Origin: a virus
Reading direction: 5' to 3' (one strand)
Length of the DNA stretch: 64,000 nt
IMG/VR virus record: IMGVR_UViG_3300021373_002342
Span: 1-64,000 of that record
The notes below the pieces were generated by a model, which was given only the letters and a program-made list of their open reading frames with translations, was not told the DNA's origin and ran no database searches. A program made the translations under genes and the position numbers. This document shows positions 38,339-64,000 of the stretch, piece by piece (position 1 is the first letter of the stretch; each line of letters opens with the position of its first letter).

Positions 38339-38499
38339 AGTTCTTCTAAAATGCCTAGTACTTCAGCGGCTGCAAAAAAGATTACAAACCAACCAATTGC
38401 GTTAGTAGCAAAGGCTGCGCCGCAACCTGCTAGTCGAAGGCCGCTTTTAGCCATGCTCATATAAAAATGCTTTTTGCTTACGTCTACTGGTTCTACCAT
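38335..38499 (-). CDS. Small membrane protein (54 aa)
   Basis: ATG 38499 overlaps the clpP stop (TAATG). One hydrophobic helix (NAIGWFVIFFAAAEVLGIL) follows a Gly/Ala-rich amphipathic segment (SGLRLAGCGAAFA). Tight coupling to clpP could mean a membrane partner of the protease, but this is only context. Confidence 0.7.
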   Translation of the reverse strand: MVEPVDVSKKHFYMSMAKSGLRLAGCGAAFATNAIGWFVIFFAAAEVLGILEEL

Positions 38500-39116
38500 T
38501 ATCTATTCTCCACTACTTTATCAGCAAAGCCGTTTTCTACTGCTTCGTCTGCTGTTAGGAATGTATCAAACTTCATTGTTTCAAACAATTCCTCATATGT
38601 TTTGCCTGCAGAGTTGTGTTTTACATATAGCTCTGTCAGACGCTTGTTAACTTTCTGTGACTCTTCGTAGTGACGTTTGATATCTTCCATTTGCAGTTCT
38701 TGAATATGAACACTACCGCTTGTACCAGGAGTGCCTGAACTTACACGGTGAATCATTGTACGGCTTTCAGGTAATACAACTCGTTTACCTTCTGTACCTG
38801 CTTGTGCTAAGAAACTGCCCATTGAACATGCTTGACCCATTACAATAGTGCGTACATCACATTTAATAAACTGCATGGTATCATAAATTGCTAGTCCTGC
38901 TGTTACAGCACCGCCTGGTGAATTAATATACAAATTAATATCTTTATCAGGGTTTTCACTTTCTAAAAATAACATTTGTGCTACAATTAGATTTGCCATA
39001 TTATCCTCAACAGGACCATTTAGCATAATAATACGATCTTTCAGCAATCGACTGTAAATATCGTATGAACGTTCTCCTCGAGCTTCTTGCTCAACTACCA
39101 TAGGTATAAGTGGCAT
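38499..39116 (-). CDS. clpP: ClpP serine protease subunit (205 aa)
   Basis: ClpP forms the barrel protease of Clp machines. The nucleophile Ser98 is in GQACSMGSF, the His123 in [10 protein letters not shown], and the Asp184 in [30 protein letters not shown] forms the oxyanion and handle region. The spacing from His to Asp is longer than in E. coli ClpP. No Clp ATPase is seen in the window, but a ClpS adaptor is at 61.5 kb, so it probably works with host ClpA/ClpX. An intragenic sigma70 promoter lies 175-200 nt upstream. Confidence 0.95.
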
Positions 39117-49899: not shown

Positions 49900-50451
49900 T
49901 TATGCTGGCTCTAACACGCTTTCAAAATATGCAATAACGTTTTCAGGTGAAGTTTCTCCATATGGATCAGGATCATCTGCTGTGCCTACTGGTTCAACAA
50001 ATGATTTTACTACTACACCATCCTCTAGGACAACTGCAAAACGTCTAGAACGCTTGCCAAAGCCTACATCACTCATATCAATAAACATACCTAAACTATC
50101 AGCAAATTCCCCATTTCCGTCTGGAATAACTTTTACATTTTTAATATCTAGATAATCAGCCCAGGCGTTCATAACAAAGCCGTCATTTACTGATGATACA
50201 TAGATTTCATCTACTTTGTACTTTTCACAGATTTCATCATAGTTTTCTTCAAAGCCTGGTAATTGGTATGTTGAACAGGTTGGAGTGTATGCGCCCGGTA
50301 GGCTGAATACAATTACTCTTTTTCCTGCAAACAAATCTTCTGTTGTGGTGGGAACAAACTCGCCACCAATTGGACAGCCACCATCTTCGGGGGCTTCATC
50401 ACCTTCTCTATACATAAAGGTGATATCTGGGATCACTTTACCTTCAATCAT
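49900..50451 (-). CDS. Peroxiredoxin, Prx5/AhpE-like redoxin (183 aa)
   Basis: Peroxiredoxins reduce peroxides with a peroxidatic cysteine. The motif FSLPGAYTPTCSTYQLPGFE gives Cys59 in the PxxxTxxC context of the Prx5 subfamily, with EICEKYKV (Cys near 73) as a possible resolving or second cysteine. Arg of the active site is probably in RSRRFAVVLEDGVV. AGGAGAT and a sigma70 promoter lie upstream. It probably protects phage replication from host or light-driven oxidants. Confidence 0.9.
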   Translation of the reverse strand: MIEGKVIPDITFMYREGDEAPEDGGCPIGGEFVPTTTEDLFAGKRVIVFSLPGAYTPTCSTYQLPGFEENYDEICEKYKVDEIYVSSVNDGFVMNAWADYLDIKNVKVIPDGNGEFADSLGMFIDMSDVGFGKRSRRFAVVLEDGVVVKSFVEPVGTADDPDPYGETSPENVIAYFESVLEPA

Positions 50452-50572: not shown

Positions 50573-50749
50573 ATGAAGCAAGATCCAGAACTAATAAGTC
50601 AACCCGAGGGCGCGATGATATATGAAAAATGTGTGGTGTGCGGCCATGCATGTCATCACGGGGATGTCTGCAAAGTTAAGGACTGTTCTTGCGGAGTTTG
50701 CTATCACGAAGTTGAAGAGGTAGATGATTATATAAACATGGAGGGCTAA
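50573..50749 (+). CDS. Cys/His-rich zinc-binding protein (58 aa)
   Basis: Cysteine/histidine spacing (KCVVCGHACHHGDVCKVKDC, then SCGVCYHEV) offers seven cysteines and three to four histidines, enough for two metal sites. First gene of a plus-strand cluster; its TAA overlaps the next ATG (TAATG). Unknown family. Confidence 0.72.
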   Translation: MKQDPELISQPEGAMIYEKCVVCGHACHHGDVCKVKDCSCGVCYHEVEEVDDYINMEG

Positions 50750-51027
50750 TGGATTTTTTATCATTAGTAAGTGAAGTAGGATTTCCTATTGCGGGGGCTA
50801 TTGCGGCAGGATATTTTGTATATCTTACACTAAGATTTATTTTAGCAGGTGTTACTGGATCGGTAACTACACTTAAAAATATCATAGGACAACTAGACAA
50901 TCGTGTACAAACAATGAACAACGATCTTGTTAAAATAGATGCACTACTATCTTATACACTTGGTGTAAAACCCAATGTGGATCGTATTGCAGCAAACGAA
51001 GGTAAAGAAGACGCAAGGAGAGATTAA
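50749..51027 (+). CDS. YvrJ/holin-like membrane protein A (92 aa)
   Basis: The N-terminal motif VSEVGFPIAGAIAAGYFVYL resembles YvrJ-type short proteins (VGFPI then one membrane helix). The soluble part contains LDNRVQTMNNDLVKIDALL, a coiled-coil-like helix. It is clearly paralogous to the gene at 51159 (DLGFPIVAALGMGYFIY). One-TM topology plus a helical tail is holin- or UviB/BhlA-like, so lysis is a reasonable guess, not a demonstration. Coupled by 1-nt overlaps on both sides. Confidence 0.78.
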   Translation: MDFLSLVSEVGFPIAGAIAAGYFVYLTLRFILAGVTGSVTTLKNIIGQLDNRVQTMNNDLVKIDALLSYTLGVKPNVDRIAANEGKEDARRD

Positions 51028-51158
51028 TGTCAAATATCGTTGAAATAGTAGATAACATAAAAAATAGATTAGAGCAGAAAGCATTAGAAGAGACGCCGCC
51101 CGAATTAATTAAAATAACAGATAATAGTACTGCTGTTGAATCAAAAAAGAAAAAATAA
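51027..51158 (+). CDS. Small phage protein (43 aa), unknown
   Basis: ATG 51027 overlaps the upstream TAA and follows AAGGAG. A single amphipathic helix (IVEIVDNIKNRLEQKALEET) and a KKKK terminus. The gene stops directly before the second YvrJ-like gene. Confidence 0.6.
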   Translation: MSNIVEIVDNIKNRLEQKALEETPPELIKITDNSTAVESKKKK

Positions 51159-51521
51159 ATGGAAGCTGACCTCGCAACAACAATTAAGGATTTAGGATTC
51201 CCAATAGTGGCAGCACTAGGAATGGGATACTTCATCTACTTCATTTGGAAGTGGGTAACAGAAACTATTGATCCTATTATTGGCGAGACAATGGGAACAC
51301 TTATTAAACTAGTTGACCGTGTTCGTATGTTAGATAATGATATGATACGTATGAATATGAAACTAGCAATGGTGTTAGAGCATAGACATTTATTAGAAGA
51401 AAAATTGTCGCCAGAACAAGTTAGCGAACTAGATGAAATAATTACTCGTTACCAAAGTAGAAATAACGAATTTGACTCTACAGGGAAAGCTCCGGGAGGA
51501 AGCGATGAGCCAAAAAAGTAA
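51159..51521 (+). CDS. YvrJ/holin-like membrane protein B (120 aa)
   Basis: MEADLATTIKDLGFPIVAAL and GMGYFIYFIWKWV form the membrane helix, paralogous to the gene at 50749. LVDRVRMLDNDMIRMNMKLA parallels the partner's LDNRVQTMNNDLVKID. Longer hydrophilic tail. The pair may form a hetero-oligomer such as holin/antiholin; this is inferred from duplication and context. Confidence 0.78.
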   Translation: MEADLATTIKDLGFPIVAALGMGYFIYFIWKWVTETIDPIIGETMGTLIKLVDRVRMLDNDMIRMNMKLAMVLEHRHLLEEKLSPEQVSELDEIITRYQSRNNEFDSTGKAPGGSDEPKK

Positions 51522-51666
51522 CTACTTGCCAGAAGAAAAAAAGTACGATTCCATGGATCGGTTTATTGAGTTTCTATGCAAGCACGATGATTGGATTATT
51601 ACTTTTGGGATTGTTAGTTCTATAATGGCGTTATTTCAAGCAGTATGTTTTTTGGGGATTATATAA
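51505..51666 (+). CDS. Small membrane protein (53 aa)
   Basis: ATG 51505 has GGGAGGA 5 nt upstream. A charged N-terminus (SNYLPEEKKYDSMDRFIEFL) and one hydrophobic helix (ITFGIVSSIMALFQAVCFLG). Overlaps the previous gene by 17 nt. Confidence 0.7.
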   Translation: MSQKSNYLPEEKKYDSMDRFIEFLCKHDDWIITFGIVSSIMALFQAVCFLGII

Positions 51667-51831
51667 ATGTTTAAATCTAAATGGGATATATGGTTAGAAA
51701 ACCAAAACGAAGCTACTAGAGTTTATCTAAAAAATCAAATGAAAGAAGATGATAAACTTATTTGGCTCGGTTTTGGTTTAGGCATACCTGTAGGATTATT
51801 ACTAGCAGTTATTATTTACTCTGCGCTATAA
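51667..51831 (+). CDS. Small membrane protein (54 aa)
   Basis: ATG 51667 directly follows the previous stop. MFKSKWDIWLENQNEATRVY precedes a C-terminal helix (LIWLGFGLGIPVGLLLAVII). The 3' end overlaps the convergent cyclase by 20 nt. Possibly part of a lysis or membrane module. Confidence 0.7.
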   Translation: MFKSKWDIWLENQNEATRVYLKNQMKEDDKLIWLGFGLGIPVGLLLAVIIYSAL

Positions 51832-53851
51832 ACACACCGTTCCAATCTTTAGGTAACTTTTGCGTTTTCTGGAACTCACAGCGTTCAATCCACATTTTAT
51901 AATAACCTTCCATTTTTCCATCAAAATGCCGCATAAGTTTATTACATTCTGTAATTGCTTGATCAAACTTTTGTGCTCTATAACAATCGTGCATACGTTC
52001 GTGTATTTCTTTGCTTTTTAGTTGTGCAGGTGTTCCAGCAATATCTAATACTGTATAAATGCTTAGTCCAACACTTTTACCTTTAACTTGTAGATCATCT
52101 ACTTTTAAGTAGAAGAAGTCATTTTTAGTTTCTTTGTAGGTTGATTCTCCGACAAGGAGTAAGCATCCGTATTCTTTACACTTTGACTCAATTCTTGCTG
52201 CTGTGGAAACAGCGTCTCCCAAAACGTCATATGAGTGTCTTTTTGTTGAGCCCATTTCACCAAGATATCCAAGGCCTGTGTTGATACCGGCTCCCATTCC
52301 AACTGGCGGCCTTCCTTCTGCTGTAATTTTGTCATTAAACTTCTCCACTGCTCGCAACATTTCTAGCCCACATTGTACTGCTGTTTTAGGATGATCTGGA
52401 TCTTCTATAGGTGCATTATGTATATGCATACTTGCATCGCCTATGTATTTGATAATCATTCCGTCCATATCAAGTACAGGCTGTGTGATAGCATCCATAT
52501 ATCCATTCATGATTTTTGTTAGTCCTTTAACATCGTCGCCAAAACTTTCACCTAATGGTGTAAAGCCACGCAAGTCTGAGAATAAAATACTAACTTCTCG
52601 TTTCATACCTTCTTTAATAAGTGCAGGATTTTCTTGTAATAGTCTTACTACAGTAGGTGATGCATAACCTGCAAACTGTTTCTTTATCGCTTGTTTTTCA
52701 AGGAACTCACGAACAAACTTAATTCCGTATACTTGTAATGCAATAATAACCAAAGTAATGATAGGTGCTGTAACATCAATTAACGCCTTTTCTGTTGCAA
52801 ACATATGCCATGAGTAAGGTAGTACTCCACTAATTAATCCTACTGTAACTACTAGTCCTACTAGCATCCATCGACTGAGTAAAATCAATAATAAACCACC
52901 TATAGCAAGCCCTACAAGCTCTGCTGTTGGCGCCCAGTCAGGTCGTTGTATATTTGTACCGTTAAACATTGTACCTATTACTGCGGCTTGGGTAGTACCT
53001 GCAAACTGTGCGCCTGTTGCTGTAGGAACAGGATTAGCAATACCTGCTGCTGTTACATCTACAATAACAACTGCTCCGCCAAAATCACTAGGCAAGTCTG
53101 CTACACTTACACGTTTTGATTGTTGACTCCAGTCAATCCACACACGCCCTTCTGAATCAGTAGGTATAGGACCAAACTGAGGTATACGCATTTTTTCTAC
53201 GCCAAACTGATTTAACTTAATTTGAAAGTTTGGATCGCCTGCTATAACACGCAGTGTTTCTAATGCTAAACTAGGATATAATGTGCCGTCAACTACTGCT
53301 ACAGTTGGCATACGTCTTACTACACCGTCAATTTCGGGCTCTGTACTTACAATACCTGCTCCAACACTGCTGTTTTCTAGTATAGGAATATTAGCAATAA
53401 TGCCACCATATGGAAGTATACGATCTAAGTATTGAGGTTGTAGAATTGCTGCTCCAGGATTAATAGGCAAGTTAACAGTTTTATCGCTAGGACGACTTGC
53501 TAGTATTACAGGCAATGCCATCATAGTTTCTGCTAATTCTGTATCACCTCCAAAGCGATCTTTTTCAGGCATCATTACGTTCCATATAACTATACCTGCT
53601 CCTCTGTTATATAGATCTTTTATAATGTCTGAATATATGTTTCTAGGAAAAGGATACTGTCCATAACGTTCTAATGCAGCGTCATCTATTTCTGCTACAT
53701 AGATATTGTTTTCTACAGGTTCCTGATTTACAATAAGTTGATCAAAATAATTTAATTTAACACTTTGGAAAAAAGCAGGCGGTGTCATAAACAAATATAT
53801 TAGAGCAGATAGTGTTAATAATGCCCACCACGGACTTAGTAATTTTTTCAT
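51812..53851 (-). CDS. CHASE2-domain class III adenylate/guanylate cyclase (679 aa)
   Basis: Architecture: N-terminal TM (residues about 8-25), a CHASE2 sensor outside the membrane (about 30-310), two or three TMs (about 315-400), then a class III cyclase domain (about 415-600). The metal aspartates are in SILFSDLRGFT and KYIGDASMHIH. The adenine-selecting Lys (IIKYIGD) and Asp (SYDVLGD) are present, suggesting ATP as substrate. The transition-state Arg is kept (AARIES), but the usual Asn four residues before it is Ser (AVSTAAR). A phage-encoded membrane cyclase is very unusual. It is downstream of the FecR/curli-type genes. Confidence 0.92.
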   Translation of the reverse strand: MKKLLSPWWALLTLSALIYLFMTPPAFFQSVKLNYFDQLIVNQEPVENNIYVAEIDDAALERYGQYPFPRNIYSDIIKDLYNRGAGIVIWNVMMPEKDRFGGDTELAETMMALPVILASRPSDKTVNLPINPGAAILQPQYLDRILPYGGIIANIPILENSSVGAGIVSTEPEIDGVVRRMPTVAVVDGTLYPSLALETLRVIAGDPNFQIKLNQFGVEKMRIPQFGPIPTDSEGRVWIDWSQQSKRVSVADLPSDFGGAVVIVDVTAAGIANPVPTATGAQFAGTTQAAVIGTMFNGTNIQRPDWAPTAELVGLAIGGLLLILLSRWMLVGLVVTVGLISGVLPYSWHMFATEKALIDVTAPIITLVIIALQVYGIKFVREFLEKQAIKKQFAGYASPTVVRLLQENPALIKEGMKREVSILFSDLRGFTPLGESFGDDVKGLTKIMNGYMDAITQPVLDMDGMIIKYIGDASMHIHNAPIEDPDHPKTAVQCGLEMLRAVEKFNDKITAEGRPPVGMGAGINTGLGYLGEMGSTKRHSYDVLGDAVSTAARIESKCKEYGCLLLVGESTYKETKNDFFYLKVDDLQVKGKSVGLSIYTVLDIAGTPAQLKSKEIHERMHDCYRAQKFDQAITECNKLMRHFDGKMEGYYKMWIERCEFQKTQKLPKDWNGVFIAQSK

Positions 53852-53861
53852 TATAATATTC

Positions 53862-53966
53862 CTAAATAAACAGCATACCTATTAAAAATCCAATATTAAG
53901 TCCTAGTGAACAATACAATAAAAGATCTTTCCCATAACTGTAAGGTTGGTATTCTACTTCGTTCAT
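53862..53966 (-). CDS. Tiny membrane protein (34 aa)
   Basis: ATG 53966 overlaps the upstream TGA (ATGA). MNEVEYQPYSYGKDLLLYCS followed by a hydrophobic helix (LGLNIGFLIGMLFI). AGGA of the cyclase lies in its 3' end, so it may couple to cyclase translation. Could be a cyclase partner; only context supports this. Confidence 0.62.
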   Translation of the reverse strand: MNEVEYQPYSYGKDLLLYCSLGLNIGFLIGMLFI

Positions 53967-54262
53967 GCCCTTCTTCCCATTAGTTTTGCTTTTAACGCAT
54001 TCATTTCTGCATCTCTGCTTGTTTTTTCAGATGTTGTACCCAAGTCTTTTTGCGTAACATTTGTTTCCTTGGGTTGGCGTATATCTCTGGGTGTCGAATA
54101 ACGATTAAGTCGTCTGTTCTGTTCTGCAATTCTTCTTCTGATATCTCGAACTTTGGCTTCAAGATCCACGGTACTATTTTGTCTGTCACTGTTTGCCCTT
54201 TCTGCGACTGTGTCTGTCGCGCCCTTATTTCCACAAATGATTCTGCACAACCATTGCCTCAT
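53963..54262 (-). CDS. Small helical protein (99 aa), unknown
   Basis: Arg/Lys-rich helical protein (DIRRRIAEQNRRLNRYSTPR). Two N-terminal cysteines (LCRIICGNKG). TATAAATA ends 4 nt before ATG 54262, with no ribosome site: leaderless class. Coupled to the 34-residue gene. Confidence 0.65.
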   Translation of the reverse strand: MRQWLCRIICGNKGATDTVAERANSDRQNSTVDLEAKVRDIRRRIAEQNRRLNRYSTPRDIRQPKETNVTQKDLGTTSEKTSRDAEMNALKAKLMGRRA

Positions 54263-54266
54263 AACG

Positions 54267-54274
54267 TATTTATA
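54267..54274 (-). promoter_or_regulatory. Late promoter TATAAATA abutting ATG 54262
   Basis: Perfect T4-type motif; the core ends 4 nt before the start codon. It lies within the last codons of the upstream tiny gene. Confidence 0.65.
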
Positions 54275-54374
54275 TTACACCTAAGAAGGCTAGCCTAAGA
54301 ATTGCTAGCCAAGCTGTTACTGATACTAACAGCCACAAGTAATGTCTATAAGTTGTGTCCTTATAGTGCCACAT
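54270..54374 (-). CDS. Tiny membrane protein (34 aa)
   Basis: ATG 54374 has GAGGG 7 nt upstream and TAAATA 18 nt upstream. MWHYKDTTYRHYLWLLVSVT, AWLAILRLAFLGVI: one aromatic hydrophobic helix. Its last codons contain the TATAAATA of the next gene. Confidence 0.65.
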   Translation of the reverse strand: MWHYKDTTYRHYLWLLVSVTAWLAILRLAFLGVI

Positions 54375-54392
54375 TTATACGCCCTCTAAACG

Positions 54393-54398
54393 TATTTA
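54393..54398 (-). promoter_or_regulatory. Late promoter motif TAAATA
   Basis: AATAAATAC on the minus strand, 18 nt before ATG 54374. It overlaps the end of the curlin-like gene region. Confidence 0.5.
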
Positions 54399-54400
54399 TT

Positions 54401-55084
54401 TTAATTATTACGATTAACTGTGACTGAACAGCCACCTAATGTTGCACAAGTACCTGTAATGCTAAATGAATCAGAAGCAGTAGTAACATTTTGAGTAAGA
54501 GTATAATTGTAGGCTCCGCCACCGTTTGTTAGATCTATTGCGGCACTTGCACTTTTGCTTCCACGCTGATCAACATCTACACTATGACCATCACCTGTAA
54601 GAACTATGTCAGCCCACTTTTGTCCGCCGTTGCCTCTTTGCAGTAAATCTACAGTATTACCGTCGCCTTGTATTTCTACAAATCCATCGTGTCCTGCTTT
54701 GCCCATTTGTATGTGTTCAACTGTATTGCTGTCACCATTTACAATGTTTGCTAGATGATGCGGTGCTCCGCCTCCGCCACCTCTATTTTCATCTGTTTGA
54801 TAACTGGCTACTGTGTTTCCATCTCCAGTTACAGTCCAGTATGCTTCGTGGCCGCCTGTTTCGTCTTGATCTATTGTACCATCTTTGTGCATGCCTTGAC
54901 GTATTGTAATATTATTGTTTGGTCCAGTAGAATTCAAACTAACGTAGTTGTCTACACTACGTTGTTGTATTTCTAAGTCGAGATTATCTCCACTTTGTGT
55001 TACATAAATTTCGTTAGCACTACTTTTGAATGATATTAATGTTGTTGTTACCAACACCAAGAAGGTAGTCATAAACTGCTTCAT
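54401..55084 (-). CDS. Curlin-repeat secreted protein B (227 aa)
   Basis: Start ATG 55084 (MKQFMTTFLVLVTTTLISFK, signal peptide to ANEIYVTQ) has GGAG/AAGG upstream. The mature part has curlin-like beta repeats of the form V-x-Q-x-G-x-x-N-x-V/I (EIYVTQSGDNLDLEIQQ, GDGNTVDLLQRGNGG, GDGHSVDVDQRGSKS), plus a Gly-rich loop (RGGGGGAPHH). In curli such repeats stack into amyloid. It overlaps the FecR gene by 65 nt. Likely a substrate of the CsgG pore. Confidence 0.85.
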   Translation of the reverse strand: MKQFMTTFLVLVTTTLISFKSSANEIYVTQSGDNLDLEIQQRSVDNYVSLNSTGPNNNITIRQGMHKDGTIDQDETGGHEAYWTVTGDGNTVASYQTDENRGGGGGAPHHLANIVNGDSNTVEHIQMGKAGHDGFVEIQGDGNTVDLLQRGNGGQKWADIVLTGDGHSVDVDQRGSKSASAAIDLTNGGGAYNYTLTQNVTTASDSFSITGTCATLGGCSVTVNRNN

Positions 55085-56153
55085 CGCCTTGCTCCACGTT
55101 AAGTTTGTATCCATAATTTCCGTTCAAATATAAATCTATTGTATTTTCTACACTAGAATCTTGTCTTTTAATATGCCACATAGGATCTTCGTAATCTAAG
55201 AAAAATCCTGTTTCTTCGTCATAACCTAATTGACGCTGTCTAAAAAATTCTTGGTTTTGAGCTTCTAGTTCGTCTTTAAAACTATTTAGTAATGCTTGAT
55301 TAAGAGCATCTATCATATCAACAAGTATTTCTCTAAGATAATAATCTGCTCCTTTATCTAATTCTGTTACCCAAATATCTTTAATGCTATCAGCTAGTGC
55401 ATCTTGATCAAGATCATCAAATTTTAAAAAATCAAAATCTAATACACTTACACTAGCTTCTTGTTGCAGCTCTTTTTCTATTGCTGCATCAATAGGATCT
55501 TTACGCCTTACAATAAGCATACCAGTAATTTGTGGCTCTGTTAGCTCAACAATAATAGGAGGGCTAGGAGACTTCCAAAGACTTTCTACACGAGTCATTT
55601 GGAATGGTTGATTCATTATAACCATTCCTGCATCATTCTCAACACTAATTTCACCTGTCACGCACTCTAACTCTACGCCGTTTTCTGTTTGACAACTAGG
55701 TAATAGTGTTACATAACTTTCGCCTATTTCATTTACAATCATAGCAAAGTCTGTACCACGAACTGATATAGTTGCAGTTGGTGTTCTTAGTCTTACATTT
55801 TGTCTTGAGTTTTTTGCAATTTGTCCACTTGCATAACGAACAGCACCTAGTGTTGCTCGCATATCTAACACGCCCTTGCCCGAAGCTGGATCATATATAA
55901 ATTCATCAATAACAACTCTACTATGATCAACTACATCAAGTCGAGTGTCATCAACAAAATCAATACGCATTTTACCTGCATTAGTAACGGCTTCGTCCAA
56001 TTGTTGGACGCTAGTGCCTACTTCGTTACCTGCATTGTTTCTGTCGCGTAAGATTTGTCCATCCCCGTCTAGTTCAGTAACGGTACCAATTGAGGACTGT
56101 GCCGCAGATGCGACAGAGAAAAATAAACTAAAGAGTAAGACTAGCACTCTCAT
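55020..56153 (-). CDS. FecR-domain secreted protein (377 aa)
   Basis: A signal peptide (MRVLVLLFSLFFSVASAAQS) is followed by a FecR-type domain (IGTVTELDGDGQILRD, VQQLDEAVTNAGKMRIDFVD, RTPTATISVRGTDFAMIVNE) over about residues 20-190. The C-terminal part is acidic and helical (DLDQDALADSIKDIWVTEL). FecR domains bind ligand or partner proteins in the periplasm. Here it sits between two curlin-like genes and upstream of a CHASE2 cyclase, so it may link secreted fibre status to the cyclase; that is inference. Confidence 0.85.
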   Translation of the reverse strand: MRVLVLLFSLFFSVASAAQSSIGTVTELDGDGQILRDRNNAGNEVGTSVQQLDEAVTNAGKMRIDFVDDTRLDVVDHSRVVIDEFIYDPASGKGVLDMRATLGAVRYASGQIAKNSRQNVRLRTPTATISVRGTDFAMIVNEIGESYVTLLPSCQTENGVELECVTGEISVENDAGMVIMNQPFQMTRVESLWKSPSPPIIVELTEPQITGMLIVRRKDPIDAAIEKELQQEASVSVLDFDFLKFDDLDQDALADSIKDIWVTELDKGADYYLREILVDMIDALNQALLNSFKDELEAQNQEFFRQRQLGYDEETGFFLDYEDPMWHIKRQDSSVENTIDLYLNGNYGYKLNVEQGDEAVYDYLLGVGNNNINIIQK

Positions 56154-56160
56154 ACTAGTC

Positions 56161-56916
56161 TTAATCTATTTGTGTGATGTCAATAGTACTACCGTTTGTT
56201 GTAGCATCAATATCAATAACGTTATCGTATACTCCGCCTTGCGAAATAGTGAATACATTGCCGCCGCCTGTTAAATCTAGATTGATAAAGTGGCCGTTTG
56301 CATCTCCATCGCCGTCTACGTCGATATCAATAATGTTACCTGCATTAGATGCACTCAAACTTACGTCTGTAGCACTAGTTGCGCCTGTTGTGTGTAAACT
56401 TGCACTATTATTAACAACAACTGTGATATCTGAATCAACACCATCAACATCTGCATCAACTACGTTGTCGTCACCTGTTACTGTAAACGCAACTGTTGAC
56501 GAACCTGCGTCTGCATTTTCGCCGATGTAGAATTTAAATGTGTTATCGTCACCTGTAGTTGTAATATCTAGTTGTACACTTTCACAATTTCCTGCACCTG
56601 CTGTTCCTAAACTGTCACACTTCATGTCTACGACATTAGTATTGCCAGTGAAACTCCAAGTACCTGTGTATGAATCACCATTGATGATTGCTGCAATATC
56701 ATTAGTATCACCTGTTTGGGTAATAGAAAATACCATGCTGTCACCTGTTAAAGTCACACCCGTGGTGCTGTCACCAAACTGGTTATTCTGCCCATCTTGA
56801 GTAATGTCTAAATCTAAGCTATCACCAACTTGCGTAATGTAAATATCATTCGCTAGGGCTGGTGTCGCTAGTAGCACTGTCATCAACGCCGATAATGTCA
56901 ACGTCTTCAACTTCAT
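56161..56916 (-). CDS. Curlin-repeat secreted protein A (251 aa)
   Basis: Signal peptide MKLKTLTLSALMTVLLATPALA is followed by NDIYITQVGDSLDLDITQDG and many G-D-x-N-x-V/F repeats (TGDDNTFKFYIG, TGDDNVVDADVDG, GGGNVFTISQGG), ending in STIDITQID. This is curlin-like but longer than CsgA and richer in Asp and Thr. AGGAGGGA lies 4 nt before ATG 56916. The start overlaps the csgG 3' end by 71 nt, so expression is tied to the secretion channel. Confidence 0.87.
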   Translation of the reverse strand: MKLKTLTLSALMTVLLATPALANDIYITQVGDSLDLDITQDGQNNQFGDSTTGVTLTGDSMVFSITQTGDTNDIAAIINGDSYTGTWSFTGNTNVVDMKCDSLGTAGAGNCESVQLDITTTGDDNTFKFYIGENADAGSSTVAFTVTGDDNVVDADVDGVDSDITVVVNNSASLHTTGATSATDVSLSASNAGNIIDIDVDGDGDANGHFINLDLTGGGNVFTISQGGVYDNVIDIDATTNGSTIDITQID

Positions 56917-57718
56917 AACTTCCCTCCTGTTGGAACTTCCAAAGTCCCTTTCTTTCGCCTTCGTAAACTAGTTCAACTACCGCTTGCTCGATAGCAGCCC
57001 TCGTAGCATAATTTACGGGCTCATTAACTGAAAAACCTGTTTCAGTCTCGAGTAACTCAGTTCCCATGTCCAAGAACTTAAATACATCCGCTCCGGACTG
57101 GTGGCTTGCAATCGTTTTTTCGGTTGCAATACTTAAAAGTACTTTCCCTGTACTTACACTTACAATTCTTAAAGAAATTGTAACTGTATCGATGCGATAT
57201 TGCGTATTTGCGCCAACACCTAACCATCTTGCGCCGACACCGCCTACTGCGACATTACTATCGTAGCCAATTATCCCCCCTTCTAATAAAAGTCCTGCAA
57301 ATAGCAAGGGTTTTAATTGTGGTGCATCTGGGCCTTCGTATTGATCTCTAGTCTGTCTTATTAGTTGTCTTTCTTTGATAAGATTGTCCATCCCTACTCG
57401 CTCAACTACGTCAAACCATCCTTCGTCGCCTACATCTTGCAGAGCCTTAATTACCCAAACTTCTCCACCTTGCGTGACTGCTGAGCTTAATTTTGCTACA
57501 CCGTCACTTGGTTTACGTTGTCCTGTTTTATCACTAAACTGATAAACAGCAATAGTAATTTTAGGTCCGTCAATTTTTGGTACATCTTCAAGACGTTGCT
57601 GAATTGGAGATGGTTGTACTATCGGTGATGTCTCTGCTTCCTGTAGTTTTAATAAACTCGGAGTCATTGCACAACCGCCTAGTAGAGCTAAAGATAGTAC
57701 GAGAAACAGATGCTTCAT
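56846..57718 (-). CDS. csgG: CsgG outer-membrane secretion channel lipoprotein (290 aa)
   Basis: CsgG forms the nonameric outer-membrane pore for curli subunits. The lipobox LALLGGC puts the lipidated cysteine at 16. Canonical blocks follow: YQFSDKTGQRKPSD, SSAVTQGGEVWVIKALQD, WFDVVERVGMDNLIKERQ, LLFAGLLLEGGIIGYDSN, GARWLGVGANTQYRIDTV, SLRIVSVSTGKVLLSIATEK. Length matches CsgG. csgF precedes it with a 1-nt overlap and a curlin gene follows. In pelagimyophages CsgG/CsgF genes are known; roles in lysis or uptake have been proposed. Confidence 0.96.
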   Translation of the reverse strand: MKHLFLVLSLALLGGCAMTPSLLKLQEAETSPIVQPSPIQQRLEDVPKIDGPKITIAVYQFSDKTGQRKPSDGVAKLSSAVTQGGEVWVIKALQDVGDEGWFDVVERVGMDNLIKERQLIRQTRDQYEGPDAPQLKPLLFAGLLLEGGIIGYDSNVAVGGVGARWLGVGANTQYRIDTVTISLRIVSVSTGKVLLSIATEKTIASHQSGADVFKFLDMGTELLETETGFSVNEPVNYATRAAIEQAVVELVYEGERKGLWKFQQEGSYEVEDVDIIGVDDSATSDTSPSE

Positions 57719-58170
57719 TAGAAACTAAAGTCTCCTTCTGCCGGAATAGTAATCTCTGTAACTGTGCCATCTTCTTGGACAATAGTTATAGTGATCATTC
57801 CGTCTGCCTTTACCCAAGTAATTGTTGACCCTTCAATCTCTGCTGTGCCTGTGTTAGAACATGTATCTGTGCAATCAGCAAACATAGCGTCAACCATCTG
57901 TTTGGATAATTGGGCATATATTCTTGATTCAACATTCCGAATAAACTTATTCAAAATGCTATTTTCTAGCTCACGTTCAATTCTTCTAGCCTCTGCTTCT
58001 GCCTTGTCTTTAATATCTTGCTTGCGATTGAACGATAATTGTTCTGTACTTAAAACGTGTGCAGAATAACCTTGTCCACTAAAACTTGGGTTTTTAAATC
58101 CCCAAACTAATTCGCTTGCCTGAGCTACAGAGCTCATAAAGAACAACGTGAGTACGGCATATTTAATCAT
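57718..58170 (-). CDS. csgF: CsgF-like curli assembly factor (150 aa)
   Basis: A signal peptide (MIKYAVLTLFFMSSVAQAS) leads to ELVWGFKNPSFSGQGYSAHV, the CsgF N-terminal segment that inserts into the CsgG pore. The middle is a charged helix (KDKAEAEARRIERELENSIL), and the C-terminus is beta-rich and diverged (WVKADGMITITIVQEDGTVT). First gene of the csgF-csgG-curlin-FecR-curlin operon; AGAGGGA and AATAAATA lie upstream. Confidence 0.9.
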   Translation of the reverse strand: MIKYAVLTLFFMSSVAQASELVWGFKNPSFSGQGYSAHVLSTEQLSFNRKQDIKDKAEAEARRIERELENSILNKFIRNVESRIYAQLSKQMVDAMFADCTDTCSNTGTAEIEGSTITWVKADGMITITIVQEDGTVTEITIPAEGDFSF

Positions 58171-58289: not shown

Positions 58290-58538
58290 ATGAAAGATAA
58301 AATGACTGAAGACGAATTACGAGCGGCTGAGCAAGATGCCCTTTGGAGAATATGTGAAGAACTAAGTGCCTATCATGATACAAGGCCTGTGGATTTGTCT
58401 CAAGAAGTTAGCGAATTAGAACAACAAGAGATTGAACGTGCATTAAGAGCGTGTGATGATAATCAAACAAAGGCAGCTAAATTATTAAAACTTAATCGCA
58501 CTACACTTCTTGCTAAAATGAAAAAGTACAATATTTAA
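58290..58538 (+). CDS. Fis-family HTH DNA-binding protein (82 aa)
   Basis: The C-terminal 40 residues (EIERALRACDDNQTKAAKLL, KLNRTTLLAKMKKYNI) match the Fis/NtrC-type HTH_8. The N-terminus is acidic (KMTEDELRAAEQDALWRICE). TAGGAAC lies upstream. It is divergent from the csgFG operon and convergent with the 554-residue gene (4-nt overlap). Probably a DNA-bending regulator; control of the adjacent secretion operon is plausible from position only. Confidence 0.88.
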   Translation: MKDKMTEDELRAAEQDALWRICEELSAYHDTRPVDLSQEVSELEQQEIERALRACDDNQTKAAKLLKLNRTTLLAKMKKYNI

Positions 58539-60232: not shown

Positions 60233-60925
60233 CTATTTTAGGAAATAACATATCCGTGCAGAATTTATCTACATCTGCTTCTGGTAATCCTAAACTTTTC
60301 ATTGTACGTGGAGTGTGCGGATTTTGTTGTTGATTATGACAATAATAGTTTTGTGCGGCAGCAACTAATGGTACTTCACCTGAACCATCGCTTTGACCTA
60401 TTTCATCAAAATATGCACGAAGATTGTTTAATGCTAGTTCTACGATAGCAACTGCTTCTTCTTAGTGTTTACATTACCTGCGGCAACCATTTTATCAGTA
60501 AAAATATTTTTAGCCCACTGCGGAAGCTCACGTTGTTTCTTAGGAATAAAATCTGCTACTGCTTCATAATAGCCTTGTATCATATCATGATCTTCATTGG
60601 TAGTAGGAGAAAAATCATGGAATGCTCCTGTCATTTTATTCTTACCTGCAATCACATCAAAGCCATATATTGGTCCGTCATTATTTAAATTAGGAAAGAC
60701 ACATACATGCATCATCCAAAGGCCTTTGCTATCTCTAGCATCCACAACGTCAATGTGTGCCCTGCGAACACTACTGTTAGCCCACACACGGTTAATCCAA
60801 CCGTTATCAGGTTGGTTAAAAGCATCAAGTCCTTCTTCATTATATTCTGTTGCTTTTTCGTTGAATATATTTATAATTTCGTCTTGACATTCAATTAGTT
60901 TAGTCCAAATAATACTCAAGAGCAA
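60228..60925 (-). pseudogene. Ferredoxin-dependent bilin reductase (PcyX/PebS/PcyA type), frameshifted
   Basis: The first frame (60925-60440) contains the bilin-reductase core: RRAHIDVVDARDSKGLWMMH, VCVFPNLNNDGPIYGFDVIA, AFHDFSPT. It ends in TAG after NVNTKKKQLLS. A second frame, shifted by one base, runs on to 60228 and supplies the missing C-terminus (VAIVELALNNLRAYFDEIGQ, AAAQNYYCHNQQQNPHTPRT, LFPKI), which fits this family. Adding a single A in the AAGAAGAAG run near 60454-60464 restores one frame. It is either a real inactivating indel or a base-call error. The likely start is a TTG near 60925, inside the heme-oxygenase 3' end. The family reduces biliverdin to bilins. Confidence 0.83.
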
Positions 60926-61469
60926 CCTCCATCATTTCTTGAAATAATTCTGTAGCAGATGTAAACACCCATTTGGCTTCTTCTGCTTGTCCGTCGTGTG
61001 TATATGTTCTTAAATTTTCTTTAAGATCTTTTACATCACCTTTAAACTGATACATGCGGCCTTCACCAGGTATCTTCTTTTTAATCATTTGCCCGCCACT
61101 AAGGTCACCCATATGTAGTACATATACGTGTGCCATAAGCAGGTCTTTGTTGTCTTTAATTTCTTCAATTCTATCTAAGTACTTCCAAGTACTAGGTAGT
61201 GTTATTGGTGTCCTATTAGCAATGTCCCAAAGCTCTTGCCAATCATCTTCTATCTTTTTCATTTGTTTGATGTCAAATAATTTTAAATCATCTGCCCAAA
61301 CACCTAACTGATCTAATGCTTCTTCGAGTGCTTCGTACTTCTTCCATTGATTATATAAGTATGTTGCATAAAAATCAGGATTGATTTTACCACTCATTAA
61401 TACTTTGACAAACTCTTGTCTTTCGGCGTTTTGGTGATGCTCCCAAGTTAGCTCTTTTAAATTGCTCAA
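60900..61469 (-). CDS. hemO: Heme oxygenase (189 aa)
   Basis: Heme oxygenase opens heme to biliverdin, CO and iron. The proximal heme ligand is His12 in TWEHHQNAE, and the distal-helix signature MGDLSGGQMIKKK lies near residue 115-127. Length is a little shorter than cyanobacterial HO1. ClpS precedes with no gap and the bilin reductase follows with overlap, so the pair forms a heme-to-bilin pathway like the phage HemO-PcyX or Ho1-PebS pairs. Iron or bilin supply during infection are possible roles. Confidence 0.93.
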   Translation of the reverse strand: MSNLKELTWEHHQNAERQEFVKVLMSGKINPDFYATYLYNQWKKYEALEEALDQLGVWADDLKLFDIKQMKKIEDDWQELWDIANRTPITLPSTWKYLDRIEEIKDNKDLLMAHVYVLHMGDLSGGQMIKKKIPGEGRMYQFKGDVKDLKENLRTYTHDGQAEEAKWVFTSATELFQEMMEVALEYYLD

Positions 61470-61784
61470 TTAGTCCTCCTCTTCCATTTTGATTTGCAAT
61501 GGAAAGCCTTTTTGTCTACTTGCCTGAACAGCTTCGTTGGTCTTTGTTTCAGCAATTTCAAAACTATACACGCCTGCTATTCCACTTCCTTCTGTATGTA
61601 TCGTCATTGTAAGTTGTTCTGCAGAAATATGGCTGTGTTTGAATACAACAGTAAGTAATTCTATTACCCATTCTACCGGAGTATGATTATCATTTAAAAA
61701 AATAACTTTGTAGCGTTTTGGAACTTCAACAGTCTTTTCTATTTTTTCATCAATTTGAATATCTTCTACAATATCTGTACTCAT
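61470..61784 (-). CDS. clpS: ClpS N-end-rule adaptor (104 aa)
   Basis: ClpS hands N-degron substrates to ClpAP. The core YKVIFLNDNHTPVEWVIELL, followed by HSHISAEQLTMTIHTEG and VYSFEIAETK, is canonical, including the ligand-binding Asn/Asp pair and the His. AAGGA precedes the ATG. It starts an operon with hemO and the bilin reductase, after an intrinsic terminator. With phage ClpP at 38.5 kb it could redirect the host ClpA machine. Confidence 0.94.
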   Translation of the reverse strand: MSTDIVEDIQIDEKIEKTVEVPKRYKVIFLNDNHTPVEWVIELLTVVFKHSHISAEQLTMTIHTEGSGIAGVYSFEIAETKTNEAVQASRQKGFPLQIKMEEED

Positions 61785-61802
61785 TTATTTTTCCTTAAAA
61801 TG

Positions 61803-61830
61803 TTAGGGGAGACAATGCTCCCCTAACAAC
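61803..61830 (-). terminator. Intrinsic terminator after hsp20
   Basis: A 10-bp perfect stem (GTTAGGGGAG/CTCCCCTAAC) with a 6-nt loop, followed by ATTTT on the minus strand. It lies between hsp20 and clpS. Confidence 0.75.
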
Positions 61831-61834
61831 TCTA

Positions 61835-62293
61835 TTACTCGACTTCGCCGTTAATTACAGGTGAACCAACATTGATGTTGATTTTCTTAGGTTGTAGTTC
61901 TTCAGGTACTTCACGAACTAAAGTAATGTTTAACATACCTAGTTCAAGATTTGCCTGCTCTACTTCCATATGATCTGCAAGTGTAAATTCTCTACGGAAA
62001 TTACGTCCTGCAATACCTTTGTGCAAGTAATTTACATCATCGTCACCCTTTGGTGCTAAACCTTCTACACGAAGAATATTACCCTCTTTAGTAATATCCA
62101 ACTCGTCCATAGCAAAGCCTGCAACGGCAAGTGAGATTACATACTCATCATCAGATATCTGTACAATATTATACGGAGGATATCCTGTTGATTGTGAATT
62201 AGAAAATTGTCTTTCTAATTCGTTAAACATTCTATCAAAGCCAATTGTGGCCCTGTGAAAATGTGGTAGGTCTAAAGTTGTTAGTCTTGTCAT
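61835..62293 (-). CDS. Small heat-shock protein Hsp20/IbpA-like (152 aa)
   Basis: The alpha-crystallin domain is intact: PYNIVQISDDEYVISLAVAG, FAMDELDITKEGNILRVEG, YLHKGIAGRNFRREFTLADH, then LELGMLNITLVREVPEE. The N-terminal FDRMFNELERQF is IbpA-like. AAGGAGA precedes the ATG. Hsp20 genes are common in T4-like marine phages. It holds unfolded proteins for DnaK, which is encoded just upstream. Confidence 0.93.
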   Translation of the reverse strand: MTRLTTLDLPHFHRATIGFDRMFNELERQFSNSQSTGYPPYNIVQISDDEYVISLAVAGFAMDELDITKEGNILRVEGLAPKGDDDVNYLHKGIAGRNFRREFTLADHMEVEQANLELGMLNITLVREVPEELQPKKININVGSPVINGEVE

Positions 62294-62304
62294 TTTATTT
62301 CTCC

Positions 62305-62345
62305 TTATTAAGCAAGATTAATGTGTAGAGCCCAAATGGCACTCT
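62305..62345 (-). terminator. Hairpin downstream of dnaK
   Basis: GTGTAGAG/CTCTACAC (8-bp stem, 11-nt loop) lies between the dnaK stop and hsp20. The following ATTAATCTT is a poor U-run, so it may be a partial terminator or an mRNA 3' stabiliser. TAATAAATAA overlaps the dnaK stop. Confidence 0.5.
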
Positions 62346-62358
62346 ACACAATTATTTA

Positions 62359-64000
62359 TTAAGATGCTTCGTCAAACTCTGCATCAATTATATCCTCAGC
62401 TTCAATTGGACCTTCGTCTGTTGCTGCTGAAGAATCTTTTTGCTGTTTAGCCGCCATTACTGCGCCGGCTGCGGTAGCAAACTCCGTGATCTTAGCGTTG
62501 ATAGCATCTGTATCATCGCCTTTAACTGCTTCTTCTAATGCATCACGTGCTTCAGTATAAGCAGTAACTTGTTCTTCTGTTAAGTCTGCTTGCACTTCTT
62601 CAAAGTCACGGTTGGCTTGAGCAATGTGTTGCTCTGCACCATTACGTGCTTCAACAAGGGCTCTACGCTTCTTGTCTTCTTCTGCATTAGCTTCTGCATC
62701 TTTCACCATTTGTTCAATTTCAGACTCAGACAAGCCGCCGTCACTTTGAATAGTTAACTTTTGTTCTTTGCCTGTGCCTTTGTCTGTAGCACTTACACTT
62801 AGAATACCGTTTGCATCAATATCAAATTTTACTTCAATTTGAGGAATACCACGCATTGCTGGTGCAATACCTTCTAAGTTAAACATGCCAAGATGTTTGT
62901 TATCTCTGATAAACTCACGCTCACCTTGTGCTACATTAATTGTAACTGCTGGTTGGTTGTCTTCTGCTGTTGAGAAAACTTGTGACTTTGATGTAGGAAT
63001 AGTTGTATTCTTATCAATCAATTTAGTCATAATGCCACCCATTGTTTCAATACCTAGTGACAATGGAGTAACGTCTAATAATAGTACGTCCTGCTTGTCG
63101 CCTGCTAGTACTGCACCCTGGATCGCTGCACCTGCTGCAACTGCTTCATCTGGATTTACATCCTTGCGTGGAGCCTTACCAAAGTATTTTTCAACAGCCG
63201 TTTGTACTGCTGGCATACGTGTTTGGCCACCTACAAGAATAACTTCGTCAATGTCACTTGGCTTTAGTCCTGCATCTTTAACTGCAACTTTACATGGCTC
63301 AATTGAACGTGCAACAAGGTCATTCACCATTGCTTCGTACTTTGAACGTGTAAGGTTAATAGCCATATGCTTAGGACCACTAGCATCAGCAGTCACATAC
63401 GGAAGGTTAATTTCAGTTTGTTCTGTGCTTGATAGTTCTACTTTTGCCTTTTCTGCCGCTTCCTTCAAACGCTGAAGAGCCATTTTATCTGTCGATAGAT
63501 CAACAGCATCTGACTTTTTAAATTCTGCAATCAAATAGTCAATAATTGCTTGGTCAAAATCTTCACCGCCTAAGAATGTGTCGCCGTTTGTAGCAAGAAC
63601 TTCAAACTGCTTTTCACCGTCAACATCTGATATTTCAATAATTGAGATATCAAAAGTACCACCACCTAAGTCGTATACTGCAATCTTCTTATCACCTTTG
63701 CCGCCTTTATCAACACCATATGCTAGTGCTGCTGCCGTTGGCTCGTTGATAATACGTAGGACTTCAAGACCTGCAATCTTACCAGCGTCTTTAGTTGCTT
63801 GACGTTGCGAGTCGTTAAAGTATGCAGGAACTGTAATAACTGCTTGTGTTACAGGCTCACTTAGATATGCTTCTGCATCTTGTTTAATTTTGCGTAGGAT
63901 TTCTGCACTAATTTGCTGTGGTGCATACTTTTCTTCACCTACTTGTACCCATGCATCTTTGTTGTCTGCTTCGACAATTTTAAAGGGCATGTTTTTGATA
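62359..64000 (-). CDS. dnaK: DnaK/Hsp70 chaperone, N-terminus beyond window (547 aa visible)
   Basis: The visible part begins near residue 115 of DnaK ([17 protein letters not shown]). It contains the ATPase motifs [51 protein letters not shown] and [13 protein letters not shown], the interdomain linker [20 protein letters not shown], the substrate domain, and an acidic tail ([14 protein letters not shown]). It is very close to bacterial DnaK, suggesting host acquisition. No DnaJ or GrpE is seen in the window. A functional Hsp70 in a phage probably assists folding of the giant virion proteins. Confidence 0.96.

What the first reader, a model, noticed from the sequence alone, without database searches (positions are those of the whole stretch)
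54401..58170. Complete curli-type secretion cassette in a phage: CsgF, CsgG, two curlin-repeat proteins and a FecR protein
CsgG and CsgF are canonical, and two secreted proteins with curlin-like repeats plus a FecR protein are in the same late operon, with the first curlin start overlapping csgG by 71 nt. CsgG/CsgF genes are known in pelagimyophages. Here the pore has its own putative amyloid substrates, so a bare lysis pore is not the only reading. Virus-directed fibres on the infected cell could aid aggregation, superinfection exclusion or progeny capture.
Basis: partly seen in the sequence, partly recalled or inferred. Interest (0 to 1): 0.75.

Follow-up and report, generated by a model that had tools for sequence, protein, structure and literature searches.

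The report
Phage-carried curli fibre secretion cassette
This marine phage carries a set of genes for building curli-like protein fibres on the infected cell, together with a likely sensor that links the fibre proteins to a signalling enzyme; the gene set is already known from related ocean phages, but the sensor's curlin-like tail and the swappable fibre tips appear not to have been described.

Summary
On the minus strand lie csgF, csgG, curlin 1, a FecR protein, curlin 2, a small ORF and a CHASE2 adenylate cyclase (51812-58170). The six-gene module is not new: phages HTVC008M and Melnitz have it in the same order, and PMC9599517 (2022) describes it, with FecR and cyclase, in ocean myo- and podoviruses. 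'Complete' holds only in the alphaproteobacterial sense: there is no CsgE.

Details I found in none of the papers searched: (1) these FecR proteins end in three ~20-residue strand-turn-strand units resembling curlin repeats, a tail absent from the bacterial FecR proteins sampled; (2) curlin 2 is fast-evolving and modular, in some phages with an N-terminal PA14 (lectin-like) or ThuA-like domain; (3) the cyclase keeps its metal and substrate residues. Best reading: secreted curli-like fibres with a variable adhesive subunit, plus a FecR/CHASE2 branch reporting curlin status as cAMP (inferred).

The parts
57718..58170 (-). csgF, 150 aa, signal peptide; CsgG-associated chaperone/constriction
   Evidence: Pfam CsgF 6.2e-17; phrog_35372 1.5e-51; 55-57% identical to HTVC008M and Melnitz CsgF
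56846..57718 (-). csgG, 290 aa lipoprotein (LLGGC lipobox); outer-membrane secretion pore
   Evidence: Pfam CsgG 1.8e-51; profile matches solved E. coli CsgG at about 1e-63
56161..56916 (-). curlin 1, 251 aa, signal peptide; conserved-length fibre subunit, likely the main one; start overlaps csgG by 71 nt
   Evidence: 52 of 70 orthologues match Curlin_rpt; AlphaFold2 pLDDT 86, pTM 0.81, VIA-align Z up to 17.1 to beta-solenoids and beta-helices over about 197 residues
55020..56153 (-). FecR-domain protein, 377 aa, signal peptide and no other apparent TM segment; PupR-like FecR domain (19-213), helical linker, C-terminal curlin-like solenoid of three strand-turn-strand units (317-376)
   Evidence: Pfam FecR 1.3e-6; model and secondary structure; Z 16.0 to PupR; tail tests
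54401..55114 (-). curlin 2, 237 aa as the longest ORF (true start perhaps at 55084), signal peptide; variable, modular subunit, possible tip or adhesin
   Evidence: Curlin_rpt 2.5e-8; architectures and rates
53963..54262 (-). small ORF, 99 aa, of unknown function between curlin 2 and the cyclase; membership uncertain
   Evidence: no significant family match
51812..53851 (-).
   Evidence: Pfam CHASE2 7.2e-32 and Guanylate_cyc 4.2e-17; 53% identical to Melnitz cyclase; D426, K468, D472 and R553 invariant in 77 of 77

Best explanation
It is a phage-carried type VIII (curli) secretion module of alphaproteobacterial type. During infection CsgG and CsgF form an outer-membrane pore, and the Sec-exported curlins 1 and 2 pass through it and stack into curli-like fibres on the infected cell (components shown by sequence and one predicted structure; secretion and assembly inferred). 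Curlin 1 is the conserved structural subunit. Curlin 2 is a variable subunit that in some relatives carries lectin-like N-terminal domains, so it most likely sets what the fibre sticks to: neighbouring cells, competing phages or progeny (inferred). The FecR protein is a periplasmic relay whose curlin-like tail senses or caps curlin in the periplasm or at the pore; through its FecR domain it passes this to the CHASE2 domain of the cyclase, which makes cAMP in the infected cell (inferred).
For: Families and order. Close match to solved CsgG. Curlin 1 solenoid. Purifying selection on csgF, csgG, curlin 1, fecR and cyclase (omega 0.06-0.21), unlike decaying genes. Curlin 2 changes faster (omega mostly 0.2-0.4) and swaps N-terminal domains: PA14 in 9, ThuA-like in 16 of 86. 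FecR tail: same motif at the end of nearly all orthologues, three strand-turn-strand units at about pLDDT 90, curlin-unit score of the median tail above 99% of shuffles, reciprocal profile finds curlin stretches (55) far more than other ORFs (5). FecR and CHASE2-type cyclase genes lie near each other in about 21 of 74 bacterial loci with no csgG, so they look like a ready-made pair added to a csgFG-curlin core. Precedents: an operon with FecR-domain and CHASE2 sensor proteins controls biofilm in Burkholderia (PMC5192318); an outer-membrane protein signals to CHASE2 cyclases in Sinorhizobium (PMC13001267).
Against: No fibres have been seen: PMC9004378 saw no clumping in cytograms or TEM of Melnitz-infected cultures. 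No CsgE gate. No phage cAMP receptor was found, so the cyclase's target would have to be a host protein, and the host is unknown. The FecR tail match is weak per sequence (no Pfam Curlin_rpt hit in 70 members; only 53 of 105 tails exceed the 99th percentile of shuffles). In 45 of 77 cyclases, this one included, the usual transition-state Asn is Ser.
Confidence: 0.6

Rival explanations
1. CsgG/CsgF is a repurposed gated pore that helps time lysis (PMC9004378); the curlin-like proteins are not fibre subunits.
For: No clumping seen in Melnitz-infected cultures, host lacks curli genes; no CsgE.
Against: That paper held that csgA/B are absent, yet the Melnitz record annotates two curlin-repeat proteins after csgG. 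Curlin genes are kept and constrained across relatives. A bare pore does not explain curlins, FecR or the cyclase.
Confidence: 0.12
2. Pore as a nutrient or cofactor uptake channel, with FecR as an iron-type regulator (suggested in PMC7029224 and PMC9599517).
For: FecR family name; hosts in nutrient-poor water.
Against: This FecR protein has a signal peptide and no other apparent TM segment or cytoplasmic anti-sigma part, so it is not a classical FecR sigma regulator. Does not explain the curlins.
Confidence: 0.07
3. Curli-like fibres are made, and FecR is a fibre part (nucleator, anchor or cap, like CsgB) through its curlin-like tail rather than a sensor; the cyclase responds to something else.
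For: Curlin-like C-terminal units next to a folded domain; no separate csgB-like anchor is obvious.
Against: FecR and CHASE2-type cyclase genes lie near each other in bacteria without curli, which favours a signalling partnership.
Confidence: 0.2

Closest known systems
Pelagiphage T8SS module (PMC9599517), incl. Pelagibacter phage HTVC008M
   Same: Same genes in the same order: csgF, csgG, curlin, FecR, second curlin, adenylate cyclase
   Different: Only 34-56% protein identity; this phage has no close cultured relative found (one virion protein is distantly like S-TIM5-type cyanomyoviruses); podovirus versions add a histidine kinase
Methylophilales phage Melnitz curli operon (PMC9004378)
   Same: Same six genes in the same order; cyclase 53% identical
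   Different: That paper reads the pore as a lysis regulator and reports no csgA/B
Alphaproteobacterial curli operons
   Same: csgF-csgG followed by curlins in four of five loci viewed; 7-residue CsgG constriction loop; CsgE absent according to PMC9599517
   Different: No FecR or CHASE2 cyclase found in the stretches viewed
E. coli csgBAC/csgDEFG
   Same: CsgG pore and CsgF homologous
   Different: No CsgE; no CsgC or CsgD seen in the cassette; the E. coli CsgG constriction loop residues are not conserved
Burkholderia BiofilmReg operon (FecR-domain protein + CHASE2 kinase; PMC5192318)
   Same: Periplasmic FecR-domain protein beside a CHASE2 sensor, tied to biofilm
   Different: Kinase, not cyclase; no curli genes; no curlin-like tail reported in the passages read

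Membership tests
Type VIII secretion (curli) system | CsgG pore lipoprotein | tested here: met
   Pfam 1.8e-51; solved CsgG about 1e-63; lipobox in the sequence
Type VIII secretion (curli) system | CsgF | tested here: met
   Pfam 6.2e-17, over cut-off
Type VIII secretion (curli) system | Secreted curlin-repeat substrates | tested here: met
   Curlin 2 over cut-off; curlin 1 through its orthologues and model
Type VIII secretion (curli) system | CsgE periplasmic gate (enterobacterial systems) | tested here: not met
   None in the record or 14 relatives, which are mostly fragments; alphaproteobacterial systems also lack it (PMC9599517), so this bars 'enterobacterial-type', not 'T8SS'
[quoted passage not shown]
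   Needs Congo red, immunogold or EM of infected or expressing cells
Pelagiphage-type T8SS module | FecR and adenylate cyclase downstream in fixed order | tested here: met
Class III adenylate cyclase | Two metal Asp, substrate Lys, catalytic Arg | tested here: met
   D426, D472, K468, R553 in 77 of 77
Class III adenylate cyclase | Transition-state Asn (not universal in the class) | tested here: not met
   Ser549 here; Ser in 45 and Asn in 32 of 77
FecR-type anti-sigma regulator | Cytoplasmic anti-sigma part plus TM segment before the FecR domain | tested here: not met
   Signal peptide leads straight into the FecR domain
Curlin repeat (FecR tail) | Match to the Pfam curlin repeat | tested here: not met
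   No Curlin_rpt hit in 70 members
Curlin repeat (FecR tail) | Strand-turn-strand units of about 20 residues with conserved Q/G/N ladder positions | tested here: met
   Strands 317-376; G366 and Q376 invariant, Q355, N370, I372 nearly so

The most novel reading that the evidence does not exclude
The FecR protein is a dedicated curlin sensor: its curlin-like tail docks onto or is completed by curlin subunits, and the FecR/CHASE2 pair turns fibre secretion status into a cAMP signal in the infected cell, while curlin 2 supplies exchangeable adhesive tips, giving a virus a self-monitoring, retargetable surface fibre.
Probability: 0.3. Interest if true: 0.75.

Novelty: new member of a known kind. 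Interest (0 to 1): 0.42.

Why it matters
The module gives cells that are not known to have curli genes a surface fibre only while infected. If true, phages decide whether some of the most abundant ocean bacteria clump, and the conserved FecR-curlin-cyclase link gives a testable route from amyloid secretion to second-messenger signalling, an input for CHASE2 sensors that is otherwise mostly unknown.

Tried and rejected
Foldseek of the curlin 1 model against PDB gave no E-value under 0.001, so the solenoid claim rests on the predicted strand ladder and the VIA-align matches; CsgA itself was not among the rows shown. The FecR tail was not covered by the structural matches and could not be folded alone (no jobs left). 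Curlin 2 was not folded for the same reason. A phage cAMP receptor was sought and not found. Promoter scan no better than shuffles. TATAAATA octamers were not pursued as late promoters because the AT-rich sequence makes them likely by chance. No Rfam element other than tRNAs in the window. The CcrColossus CsgG-like gene (27% identity, unrelated neighbours) was set aside as a different kind. Curli cassettes on contigs of bacterial bins (L167-L171, L187) were taken as phage contigs in the bins, not as bacterial operons.

Full report
What is there. On the minus strand, 58170 to 51812, lie csgF, csgG, curlin 1, FecR, curlin 2, a 99-aa ORF and a CHASE2 adenylate cyclase. Curlin 1 alone falls below Pfam's cut-off, but 52 of 70 orthologues match Curlin_rpt. 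The record is a 92,205-base viral contig with tail-fibre and virion proteins.

It is known. HTVC008M and Melnitz carry the same genes in the same order (34-56% identity). PMC7029224 reported csgF, csgG and neighbours and proposed 'sibling capture'. PMC9599517 identified the curlins, FecR and cyclase in ocean myo- and podoviruses, argued for an alphaproteobacterial origin and noted the absence of CsgE. PMC9004378 instead proposed a lysis pore and said csgA/B are absent, although the GenBank record of Melnitz annotates two curlin-repeat proteins.

Survey. Two scans of IMG/VR, one by FecR and one by CsgG, returned 80 loci each. Of 87 with enough flanking DNA, 80 have csgF-csgG-curlin-FecR-curlin-cyclase. 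The loci are the best matches, so distant relatives are under-sampled, and some contigs appear in both scans. Pairwise omega is 0.06-0.21 for csgF, csgG, curlin 1, fecR and cyclase, and mostly 0.2-0.4 for curlin 2, whose dN is often several times that of its neighbours. Between the window and its near relative L008, curlin 2 has dN 0.59 against 0.12-0.20 for the others.

Curlin 1. The AlphaFold2 model (66 sequences) has pLDDT 86 and pTM 0.81 and is all beta after the signal peptide. VIA-align places it with beta-solenoids and beta-helices, Z up to 17.1 over 197 residues. Foldseek E-values are weak. So a stacked solenoid is predicted; amyloid assembly is not shown.

Curlin 2 is modular. Of 86 full-length proteins, 61 are repeats only (102 aa to over 300 aa), 9 carry an N-terminal PA14 domain and 16 a ThuA-like domain. 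The ThuA name rests on one weak Pfam match (0.023). PA14 and GLEYA domains bind sugars in known adhesins (established knowledge, not tested here). The window's own curlin 2 is repeats only. I infer a variable adhesive or tip subunit.

FecR tail. All 70 representatives match Pfam FecR. The model has a PupR-like FecR domain (Z 16.0), a low-confidence helical linker, and six strands at 317-376 with pLDDT near 90, spaced as three units of about 20 residues. Nearly all orthologues end in the same motif. A curlin-unit profile built without FecR scores best in the tail in 96 of 105, and the median tail beats 99% of shuffled tails. The reverse profile, apart from FecR itself, lists 55 curlin stretches and 5 others, though most of these single matches are weak. 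FecR proteins in 74 bacterial loci show no such tail. Against it: no Pfam Curlin_rpt hit. I call it curlin-like, not curlin.

Origin. In about 21 of 74 bacterial loci, FecR and a CHASE2-type cyclase lie near each other with no csgG. Five alphaproteobacterial CsgF loci over the cut-off, out of 385 genomes, have csgF, csgG and curlins but no FecR or cyclase in view. The phage cassette therefore looks like a curli core joined to a FecR/CHASE2 pair, with the tail as the link; this history is inferred.

Cyclase. D426, K468, D472 and R553 are invariant in 77 of 77; the usual Asn is Ser549 here, so activity is likely but not certain. No cNMP-binding receptor is in the phage records searched.

Mechanism. 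Shown by sequence: pore, chaperone, curlins, FecR, cyclase, conserved order, selection. Predicted: curlin 1 solenoid and FecR tail. Inferred: secretion, fibre formation, adhesion, and the relay from curlin through FecR to CHASE2 and cAMP. Published precedents for parts of the relay are in Burkholderia and Sinorhizobium.

Verdict. A member of a published module in a phage for which I found no close cultured relative, with three details I did not find in the papers searched (open-access library only).

Noticed in passing
60900-63990 (-), 38499-39116 (-), 49900-50451 (-): Proteostasis and stress genes in the phage: DnaK (its start lies beyond the window's end), Hsp20, ClpS, heme oxygenase, a ClpP-like protease 65% identical to that of PA5oct-type jumbo phages, and a peroxiredoxin.
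   Followed up: partly
50573-51831 (+): A run of small ORFs, several with a membrane-like stretch, on the opposite strand and converging on the cyclase; one matches phrog_18771 of unknown function.
   Followed up: no
L167, L168, L169, L170, L171, L187: Curli cassettes on contigs binned as Rhodobacteraceae, Pirellulales, Flavobacteriaceae and Pelagibacter genomes, most likely phage contigs in the bins.
   Followed up: partly
L003:8815-11609: GenBank annotates two curlin-repeat proteins in Melnitz, while the paper on it says csgA and csgB are absent.
   Followed up: yes
L204:7812-9356: A FecR-domain protein in a contig titled Pelagibacteraceae single-cell genome, whose genome shows no csgG.
   Followed up: no
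58290-58538 (+): A small Fis-type HTH protein encoded divergently from csgF, sharing its upstream region.
   Followed up: no
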